Shown: positions 43,496-44,697 of the stretch, piece by piece
How positions within the stretch are numbered: the first letter of the stretch is position 1
Layout: every line of letters begins with the position of its first letter
Origin: Exiguobacterium sp. Helios
Lineage (GTDB): Bacteria; Bacillota; Bacilli; Exiguobacteriales; Exiguobacteriaceae
Reading direction: 5' to 3'
Length of the DNA stretch: 64,000 nucleotides
NCBI RefSeq assembly: GCF_014524545.1
Contig: NZ_CP053557.1
Coordinates: 62,001-126,000, forward strand
Notes under the pieces: generated by a model
Database searches by the model: none
Seen by the model: the letters and a program-made list of their open reading frames with translations, nothing else
What the model was told of the DNA's origin: nothing
Translations under genes and position numbers: made by a program

Positions 43496-43984
43496 ATGCG
43501 TCCAGAAGATTTAAACGATTTGTCCTTACTTGGTCAAAAGTCTGTCCCGTATATTTTTGAATATCAACCGGAAGTGCTTGAAGCCTTCCCGAACCGTCAC
43601 CCGGAAAATGATTACTTCGTAAAATTCAATGCACCTGAATTTACGAGCCTTTGTCCGATTACGAATCAACCGGATTTTGCGACCATCTACATCTCTTACA
43701 TCCCGGACGAGAAGCTGGTCGAATCAAAATCACTAAAACTTTATCTGTTCAGCTTCCGTAATCATGGTGACTTCCATGAAAACTGCATCAACGTTATCGG
43801 GAAGGATCTTGTCAAACTGATGGAACCCCGTTACCTCGAAGTATGGGGAAAATTCACACCACGCGGCGGGATTTCAATTGATCCATACTACAACTACGGT
43901 AAACCGGGTACGAAATATGAACAGATGGCAGAGCACCGTCTGTTTAATCATGATTTATATCCCGAAACCATCGATAATCGATAA
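43496..43984 (+). CDS. queF: NADPH-dependent 7-cyano-7-deazaguanine reductase QueF
   Basis: A 162-residue unimodular Que[48 protein letters not shown] contains the catalytic cysteine and the ESKSLKLY QueF signature. It reduces preQ0 nitrile to preQ1, the ligand of the riboswitch upstream, closing a feedback loop. AAGGAG precedes the ATG. It is the last gene of the operon; the structured repeat at 43997 follows 12 bp later. Confidence 0.97.
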
Positions 43985-43996
43985 TACAGTAAAAGA

Positions 43997-44234
43997 GGCT
44001 GACTCAAAAAGGAATCTCTCGTCTTTTCACGCCCTTTCCTCAGGCGAGACACAAGCCAGTTTTCCTGCCTCATTCAGGCAGGAAAGCGGGTCTTGTTTGT
44101 CTCTGACAGCACAAAAATGCGCTTTTTCCTGTAGGAGTTGCGTGAAACGAGTGATTCCTGTTTAAACGAGAAAAGGGCGGCAGAATTAGAATCTGCCATC
44201 CTTTTCTTTGTAAGGACTGACTTTTGAGTCAGCC
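43997..44234. repeat. 238-bp structured element with terminal inverted repeats (MITE-like or RNA element)
   Basis: Ends are a perfect 13-bp inverted repeat GGCTGACTCAAAA (43997-44009) and TTTTGAGTCAGCC (44222-44234). Inside, GGAATC-t-CTCGT-ct-TTTCACG (44011-44031) pairs with CGTGAAACGAG-t-GATTCC (44141-44158). It encloses a hairpin with 10-bp core TTTCCTGCCT/AGGCAGGAAA and outer GAGACACAAG pairing (44046-44103). A second hairpin is AGAAAAGG..GGCAGA/TCTGCC..CCTTTTCT (44169-44207). No coding capacity is seen. The right end with its T-run may also terminate queCDEF or the convergent XRE gene. Confidence 0.7.
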
Positions 44235-44248
44235 CTTTTTTTCTATCG

Positions 44249-44533
44249 TTAACTCGAAGGCAAATCAATGATTTTTTGATCTTCCTCTTGTTGAAAAATC
44301 ATTTGCGCCGACCAGATATCCCGAAGTAAATGTTCGTACGGAACACCTAACACCTTTGCCAACCGTTCGATCATCGAAAAGGATGGATATGCCAGGCTTT
44401 TTTCAATCCGATTCATCATTTCAGGTGTCGTTTCCGTCAGTTCCGCAAGTTGTTCGAGCTCCATGCCCTGTCGGTTCCGTAACATTCGAATTCGTTCTCC
44501 ATAGTTCGTGAGAGGAATGATCGATTCACTCAT
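44249..44533 (-). CDS. XRE-family helix-turn-helix regulator
   Basis: A 94-residue regulator. YGERIRMLRNRQGMELEQLAELTETTPEMMNRIEKSLAYPSFSMIERLAKVLGV is a complete Cro/C1-type HTH covering residues about 10-65. The short C-terminal tail (WSAQMIFQQEEDQKIIDLPSS) is acidic with no known domain. It lies divergent from a PTS gene and may regulate it, though a LacI-type operator sits there instead. AAGGAG favours the ATG at 44533. Confidence 0.88.
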   Translation of the reverse strand: MSESIIPLTNYGERIRMLRNRQGMELEQLAELTETTPEMMNRIEKSLAYPSFSMIERLAKVLGVPYEHLLRDIWSAQMIFQQEEDQKIIDLPSS

Positions 44534-44697
44534 GATTTCGTCTCCTTTTTCTAAGCACATGACGCTCCGCTTTCTTTCCTGTTAACTTATTCCCGATTTT
44601 CATTTTTCAACACTTCTCCTATTCATAATATTCATTTTCTAAAATATAATTTCAAAAAAATCATAAAAAAGAACTAGCTTTTTAAAAAGTTATCGCT

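What the first reader, a model, noticed from the sequence alone, without database searches (positions are those of the whole stretch)
43997..44234. Structured 238-bp inverted-repeat element after queF
A perfect 13-bp terminal inverted repeat encloses a long internal stem and two hairpins with compensating layout, with no coding capacity. It looks like a non-autonomous mobile element or a repeat RNA, perhaps reused as a terminator. The ends resemble the GGCTGACTCAAAA-type ends of small repeats in Bacillales, but I have no database to confirm this.
Basis: partly seen in the sequence, partly recalled or inferred. Interest (0 to 1): 0.6.

Follow-up and report, generated by a model that had tools for sequence, protein, structure and literature searches.

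The report
Mobile repeat that replaces gene-end terminators
This 238-base stretch is one copy of a small gene-less mobile repeat of Exiguobacterium bacteria that appears to spread by taking the place of the hairpin 'stop signs' at the ends of genes, so that each new copy can serve as the gene's new stop signal.

Summary
In detail: 43997-44234 has a perfect 13-bp terminal inverted repeat, very strong structure (z about -11) and no credible gene. It is one copy of a dispersed family: 19 BLAST matches in its own genome and matches in all 19 Exiguobacterium genomes searched, but in 0 of 22 others. The element is modular: inverted ends, a covarying three-way-junction core and a second hairpin. The core alone is wider: it recurs in other Bacillales genera and had no Rfam match. 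The main result comes from comparing sites. I tested 26 of 40 loci. At 25, relatives carry a simple stem-loop where the element sits; the stem-loop is gone, the A-rich and T-rich sides are mostly kept, and no target duplication is evident. A strict rule of 25 terminator-like, against 1.9% of background positions. All 27 loci checked have a gene ending at the element, 18 of them two convergent genes. I read it as a non-autonomous element that replaces terminators and supplies a new one. From memory, Enterococcus EFAR elements behave alike. What moves it is unknown.

The parts
43997..44234 (+). whole composite element (238 bp)
   Evidence: boundaries from the perfect terminal repeat and from alignment with 35 other copies
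43997..44009 (+). left terminal inverted repeat GGCTGACTCAAAA
   Evidence: pairs with 44222-44234
44222..44234 (-). right terminal inverted repeat
   Evidence: 44217-44232 is also a small hairpin followed by a T run
44010..44159 (+). core arm: outer stem 44010-44023 / 44148-44159 enclosing the core
   Evidence: fold; covarying pairs (helix 2)
44024..44147 (+). conserved three-way-junction core, match of covariance model R1
   Evidence: G000:C1:106024-106147; 28 of 43 pairs with changes on both sides in 24 sequences
44059..44087 (+). variable inner hairpin of the core
44108..44123 (+). small side hairpin of the core (AGCAC..GCGCT)
   Evidence: helix 3
44170..44206 (+). second hairpin, terminator-like, GAAAAGGGCGGCAGA..TCTGCCATCCTTTTC
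   Evidence: covarying helix 7
43991..43996 (+). A-rich stretch AAAAGA, at the place of the A-tract of relatives' terminators
   Evidence: at this locus the last 9 nt before the element do not align with G010, so that this stretch was kept is inferred from other sites
44235..44242 (+). T tract CTTTTTTT, at the place of the T-tract of relatives' terminators
   Evidence: at this locus the first 13 nt after the element do not align with G010, so that this stretch was kept is inferred from other sites
43496..43984 (+). queF; its stop codon ends 12 nt before the element
   Evidence: Pfam QueF
44249..44560 (-). small helix-turn-helix regulator gene, convergent with queF; its stop is 14 nt after the element
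   Evidence: Pfam HTH_31 and HTH_3

Best explanation
It is a small, gene-less, modular mobile repeat that spreads among the intrinsic terminators of Exiguobacterium chromosomes. SHOWN by comparison: at 25 of 26 sites compared, relatives have a simple stem-loop where this family has the 240-bp element; the stem-loop is missing from the filled site and the A-rich and T-rich sides are mostly kept. In one genome, two sites with unrelated flanks carry copies identical over 237 nt. INFERRED: the element then acts as a two-way transcription terminator, so that insertion is nearly harmless to the host. INFERRED: the target is recognised by shape (a hairpin or cruciform) and not by sequence, since the replaced stem-loops are unrelated to each other. 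UNKNOWN: what moves it. My best guess is a structure-directed exchange during replication, in which the hairpin on a single strand is cut or skipped and the element is copied in between the two tracts, with or without a dedicated enzyme.
For: Matches in all 19 genomes of the genus searched, 10-25 each. The queF-HTH junction has only a short hairpin and no element in 16 of 18 other genomes. Of 26 sites tested (of 40 loci), 25 have a simple stem-loop in relatives (one to four relatives looked at per site). In the paired comparison 18-58 nt of the empty site are missing, local flank identity is 79-100%, and the 60-nt window at the site folds to -15 kcal/mol or lower at 25 of 25 sites against 1768 of 9303 background windows. 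A strict terminator rule gives 22 of 25 sites against 1173 of 63050 background positions. Direct repeats across the 25 filled sites are no longer than between mismatched flanks (mean 3.3 against 3.5 nt; 1 of 25 reaches 6 nt, against 17 of 600). Clearest case: G017 filled against G018 and G003 empty, flanks 100% and 98% identical to G018. Copies L044 and L224 of G017 are identical over 237 nt. All 27 loci checked have an open frame ending at the element (median 14 nt); at 18 two convergent ones do. Terminator-like hairpins lie inside the element, three on the + strand and one on the - strand.
Against: No RNA data, so terminator activity is inferred. One of 26 sites (L040) has a partial older composite and not a simple stem-loop in relatives. 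In G001 and G016 a related but different insertion at the queF site lies inside the terminator with a 12-nt duplication, i.e. ordinary insertion. Three of 25 empty sites fail the strict automatic rule, though they fold as hairpins. At 11 of 25 sites the site window is not the lowest-energy window of its locus. At some sites, the window's own among them, the sides next to the element do not align well with the relative. No mobilising gene was found; PF01797 is absent from the own genome.
Confidence: 0.72

Rival explanations
1. Ordinary MITE: a transposase encoded elsewhere recognises the GGCTGACTCAAAA ends and inserts it by cut-and-paste with a target duplication, and selection leaves only copies near gene ends.
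For: Terminal inverted repeats, no coding capacity, many copies, sites without it in relatives.
Against: No duplication is evident at the 25 replaced sites and 18-58 nt of target is missing. None of the 23 matches to GGCTGACTCAAAA in the own genome (up to 1 mismatch) was seen to bound a longer gene-bearing element in the 0.5 kb around it that I printed; this was by eye and limited in range.
Confidence: 0.12
2. No dedicated enzyme: replication or repair stalls at a terminator hairpin, the nascent strand switches by A-tract and T-tract microhomology to a copy of the element elsewhere, copies it and returns.
For: The kept sides are short A-rich and T-rich tracts such as terminators share. No BLAST match in the plasmid and phage collections. 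One site (L225/L043) carries the element in opposite orientations in two close genomes.
Against: By eye, the simple stem-loops of different species at one site are mostly versions of one another and not swapped, so the element would have to be a favoured donor; at queF, however, they do differ between clades.
Confidence: 0.3
3. Two steps: the element inserts beside or inside a terminator, and the now redundant old hairpin is later deleted.
For: G001 and G016 at queF show an insertion inside a terminator with both parts kept.
Against: Very young copies (flanks 98-100% identical, copies identical over 237 nt) already lack the old hairpin; no intermediate was seen among the 25 sites.
Confidence: 0.12
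4. A functional structured RNA (small RNA or 3' UTR element) kept for a host role, whose spread is secondary.
For: Strong covariation of the core within the genus and in other Bacillales. At each of nine core-only sites asked, at least one relative has a gap of about element length between the flanks.
Against: No Rfam match at gathering score. Sites of the composite differ between species. Covariation is also expected of inverted-repeat DNA. Several core copies have internal deletions.
Confidence: 0.1

Closest known systems
EFAR elements of Enterococcus faecalis (recalled; De Gregorio et al. 2009 FEMS Microbiol Lett 292:7, seen only as a mention and a reference in PMC3733652)
   Same: From memory: palindromic miniature elements of variable modules, mostly about 170 bp; empty sites are unrelated 24-37-bp stem-loops that are mostly deleted on insertion. 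The behaviour is the same as here.
bcr1 of the Bacillus cereus group
   Same: Small structured dispersed repeat of a Bacillales genus (PMC2267715 Table 3, section read: model 167 bp).
   Different: Recalled to make ordinary target duplications; not known to me for replacing terminators. No sequence comparison was made.
YPAL / RU-2 of Yersinia
   Different: Makes target duplications of 3-26 bp (same passage); here 18-58 nt of target is missing and no duplication is evident.
REP / REPIN with RAYT transposases
   Same: Palindromic and intergenic; several Bacillales loci hold the core as inverted pairs.
   Different: No Y1 (PF01797) match in the own genome and a match in only 9 of 19 genus genomes.
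Bhal-1 and Bant-1 stem-loop families (PMC2267715 Table 3)
   Same: Intergenic repeats of 74 and 72 bp in Bacillus halodurans and B. anthracis; might be the Bacillales core.

Membership tests
EFAR-like terminator-replacing element (features recalled) | empty sites are unrelated stem-loops | tested here: met
   25 of 26 sites tested
EFAR-like terminator-replacing element (features recalled) | most of the stem-loop is deleted on insertion | tested here: met
   18-58 nt of the empty site missing in 25 comparisons
EFAR-like terminator-replacing element (features recalled) | modular palindromic structure of variable make-up | tested here: met
   composites, core-only copies, half copies, two-core versions
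EFAR-like terminator-replacing element (features recalled) | acts as a two-way terminator | not testable with these tools
   needs RNA data; structure and T tracts fit
EFAR (as a sequence family) | sequence homology with EFAR | not tested
   EFAR sequences not at hand
MITE | terminal inverted repeats, no gene, many copies | tested here: met
MITE | target site duplication | tested here: not met
   direct repeats across 25 filled sites no longer than across mismatched flanks; one 12-nt duplication in a different insertion
MITE | ends shared with an autonomous transposon | tested here: inconclusive
   none seen in the own genome in 0.5 kb around 23 matches to the end sequence
REP/RAYT | Y1 tyrosine transposase in the genome | tested here: not met
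   0 in own genome; 9 of 19 genus genomes have a match
any Rfam family | match at gathering score | tested here: not met
   0 in the window and 0 in 12 loci holding core copies

The most novel reading that the evidence does not exclude
A distinct mode of DNA mobility, hairpin-for-hairpin exchange: a palindromic element moves by replacing the tip of any genomic hairpin, chosen by shape, leaving the arms or tracts and making no target duplication. The core repeat shared with other Bacillales would be its structural signature, and core-only copies, each set in its own site-specific outer stem, would be older products of the same process.
Probability: 0.35. Interest if true: 0.85.

Novelty: new variant of a known kind. 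Interest (0 to 1): 0.6.

Why it matters
It gives a clean set of before-and-after sites, one with 98-100% identical flanks, for an element that takes the place of terminator hairpins. That makes the open question of how stem-loop-targeting miniature elements move directly testable. It also shows how a mobile repeat can rewrite gene ends across a genus at little apparent cost, and it ties the element to a structured repeat of several Bacillales genera that had no match in Rfam.

Tried and rejected
Rfam at a relaxed threshold gave six matches, all far below the families' cutoffs: best by score RsaE (17.6 bits, cutoff 79), best by E-value CsrC (0.011; 15.8 bits, cutoff 61); rejected. A RAYT/Y1 transposase as the mover: absent from the own genome and a match in only 9 of 19 genus genomes; not supported. 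BLAST of the element against the plasmid and phage collections gave no match.

Nine literature searches were run. In the rows listed I saw no description of this element in Exiguobacterium or of a mobile element replacing terminators. The lists were capped (20 of 851; 15 of 267; 15 of 69; 12 of 28). Six sequence words of the Bacillales core gave no paper. The library is open-access only. I saw passages of PMC3733652 and PMC2229807, and passages and one section of PMC2267715.

Core-only copies were examined for empty sites. At each of the nine sites asked, at least one relative has a gap of about element length. Five shorter versions were aligned; by eye they look like later deletions, but at two (L215 and L216 in G004) a true empty site with a short direct repeat is not excluded. 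So I draw no insertion mechanism from them. Site-specific outer stems: in 13 own-genome core-only copies the left flank pairs best with its own right flank in 11 of 13 (9 of 156 cross pairs as good); in 27 Bacillales copies this holds in only 7 of 27 (165 of 702 cross pairs as good). Whether the outer stems are the target's own was not resolved.

The minimum-energy comparison is a weak control (19% of background windows also reach -15 kcal/mol); one search is the better one. In one search my script took the wrong loci for sites L021 and L040; corrected. The empty site used for L223 is L243 and L242.

Full report
WHAT IS THERE. The 238 bp at 43997-44234 begin with GGCTGACTCAAAA and end with its exact complement. 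Both strands fold far better than shuffles (z -11.2 and -11.3). The element fills the gap between queF and a convergent small HTH gene: queF stops 12 nt before it and the HTH gene stops 14 nt after it. There is no credible gene inside and no Rfam match.

A FAMILY. BLAST finds 19 matches in the own genome: three copies spanning nearly the whole element (this one, 1444146, and 2953266 with an internal deletion), one copy reduced to its two ends (2948313-2948457), halves, and copies of the core alone (sequences). All 19 genomes of the genus searched have 10-25 matches each; 22 genomes outside it, six of them in the same family, have none. The genus is Exiguobacterium: contig lengths of G010, G012 and G009 equal those of E. 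sibiricum 255-15, E. undae DSM 14481 and E. antarcticum DSM 14480 records.

ANATOMY. The full element has inverted ends; a core arm of about 150 nt; a second, terminator-like hairpin (44170-44206); and a right end that is itself a small hairpin before a T run. On 36 copies, the fold of this copy has 94.6% of cells paired and 21 of 92 pairs with changes on both sides; none of 500 shuffles reached either value. The ends are themselves a terminator-like motif of this genome: GGCTGACTCAAAAGTCAGCC stands alone as a small hairpin at 1059023, with similar ones at 789174 and 2863747.

THE CORE IS WIDER. An alignment of 24 cores supports a three-way junction: 28 of 43 pairs have changes on both sides (shuffle mean 12.3). 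The covariance model R1 finds 20 copies in the own genome and matches in 42 of 299 genomes of the class: 13 Exiguobacterium, 11 of the 14 sampled genomes of another genus of the family, and 18 from eight other families. It gave 76 matches at E up to 1 in 54 of 73 loci, 55 of them below 0.01 (loci counted). They lie in Oceanobacillus, Lysinibacillus, Salibacterium, Halalkalibacter, Planococcus, Psychrobacillus and similar genera. None of the nine loci outside Bacilli (Desulfofustis, Electrothrix, Bacteroidales, Mediterraneibacter, Cellvibrio, Actinomycetota, Lentisphaerae, Kiritimatiellae, Rhizobiaceae) matched; nor did ten others of the 73, a Staphylococcus locus among them. On the 76 matches the pairs again covary (35 of 43 pairs), but that alignment was fitted to the model. 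No Rfam family matches 12 loci holding core copies, ten of them from other genera. That this is a common Bacillales repeat I first recalled from memory; the calls above are the test.

EMPTY SITES. At the queF site, 16 of 18 other Exiguobacterium genomes have only a short hairpin between the two genes (folds). I then asked for the flanks of 25 more copies (7, 11, 7). So 26 of 40 loci were tested, the 40 being the 27 and the 14, which share one. They were chosen without sight of their own empty sites, but not at random; of the 14, three were left out. In 25 of 26, relatives (one to four looked at per site) have a simple stem-loop where the element stands. The A-rich side before it and the T-rich side after it are mostly kept; the stem-loop between them is gone. 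At L235 part of the old stem (AAAATGAC ... GTCATTTT) is also kept. The 26th site, L040, has a partial older composite in relatives.

HOW SURE. In pairwise comparison the local flank identity is 79-100% and 18-58 nt of the empty site are missing from the filled one. The local fold is -15 kcal/mol or lower at 25 of 25 sites against 1768 of 9303 background windows; the site is the lowest window of its locus in 14 of 25. A stricter rule, a stem of at least nine pairs with an A or T tract, is met at 22 of 25 sites and covers 1173 of 63050 background positions. The three that fail still fold as hairpins. Direct repeats across the filled sites are no longer than chance: mean 3.3 nt against 3.5 for mismatched flanks, with 1 of 25 reaching 6 nt against 17 of 600. 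The youngest case is G017 against G018 and G003, with flanks 100% and 98% identical to G018. In G017 two copies at unrelated sites, L044 and L224, are identical over 237 nt, and both stand where relatives have a stem-loop. At the window's own site the 9 nt to the left and 13 nt to the right of the element do not align with G010, so the tracts there are matched by position only.

CONTEXT. Of 27 loci with long flanks, all have an open frame ending at the element, median 14 nt away, and 18 lie between two convergent ones (open frames only, no gene caller).

EXCEPTIONS. In G001 and G016 the queF terminator is interrupted by a longer insertion that holds a partial composite and a second, divergent core, with a 12-nt duplication. 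At one site G017 and G018 carry the element in opposite orientations. Core-only copies: at each of nine own-genome sites asked, at least one relative has a gap of about element length; five shorter versions look like deletions, two of them not certainly. Each of 13 core-only copies of the own genome tends to sit in an outer stem of its own sequence (self pairing best in 11 of 13); this would fit insertion into hairpins but does not prove it, and in 27 Bacillales copies it holds in only 7.

MECHANISM. Shown: copies at new sites, in place of stem-loops. Inferred: the element then serves as terminator, and the target is read by its shape. Not known: the agent. No Y1 transposase is in the own genome, and 9 of 19 genus genomes have a match. 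The own-genome matches to the end sequence showed no longer element around a gene in the stretch printed. BLAST against the plasmid and phage collections gave nothing. I give about 0.3 to template switching between terminators without a dedicated enzyme, and do not exclude an unknown structure-specific recombinase.

WHAT IS KNOWN. The closest precedent is the EFAR family of Enterococcus faecalis, which I recall as inserting into unrelated stem-loops and deleting most of them. The paper is not in the library (looked up; one search tried a DOI from memory) and I saw only its mention and citation, so this comparison rests on memory. I therefore file the element as a new variant of a known kind: it works like EFAR, while membership by sequence is untested.

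Noticed in passing
L131 (G001) and L130 (G016), queF site; also L237 and L238 (G017): A longer version holds a second, divergent core (GTTTTCCTGGGACAAGC..GCTTGTTTTTCCC) beside the composite core; at queF it lies inside the terminator with a 12-nt duplication GAAATCCCTTTG.
   Followed up: partly
L225 (G017) and L043 (G018): Same site, element in opposite orientations in two close genomes: in-place inversion or independent insertion.
   Followed up: partly
L240 (G017) and L027 (G018): Apparently the same site by eye, with the core arm inverted inside otherwise like-oriented ends.
   Followed up: no
L015, L004 and L220: Internal deletions of the core, by eye between the repeats CTTTCCT and CTTTTTCCT.
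   Followed up: partly
L306, L316, L326, L352, L363, L371 and others: In these Bacillales loci the core occurs as inverted pairs roughly 70-100 nt apart, like REPIN doublets.
   Followed up: no
G000:C1 1059023, 789174, 2863747: Stand-alone small terminator-like hairpins GGCTGACTCAAAAGTCAGCC and variants share the element's end sequence; the ends may derive from such a terminator.
   Followed up: partly
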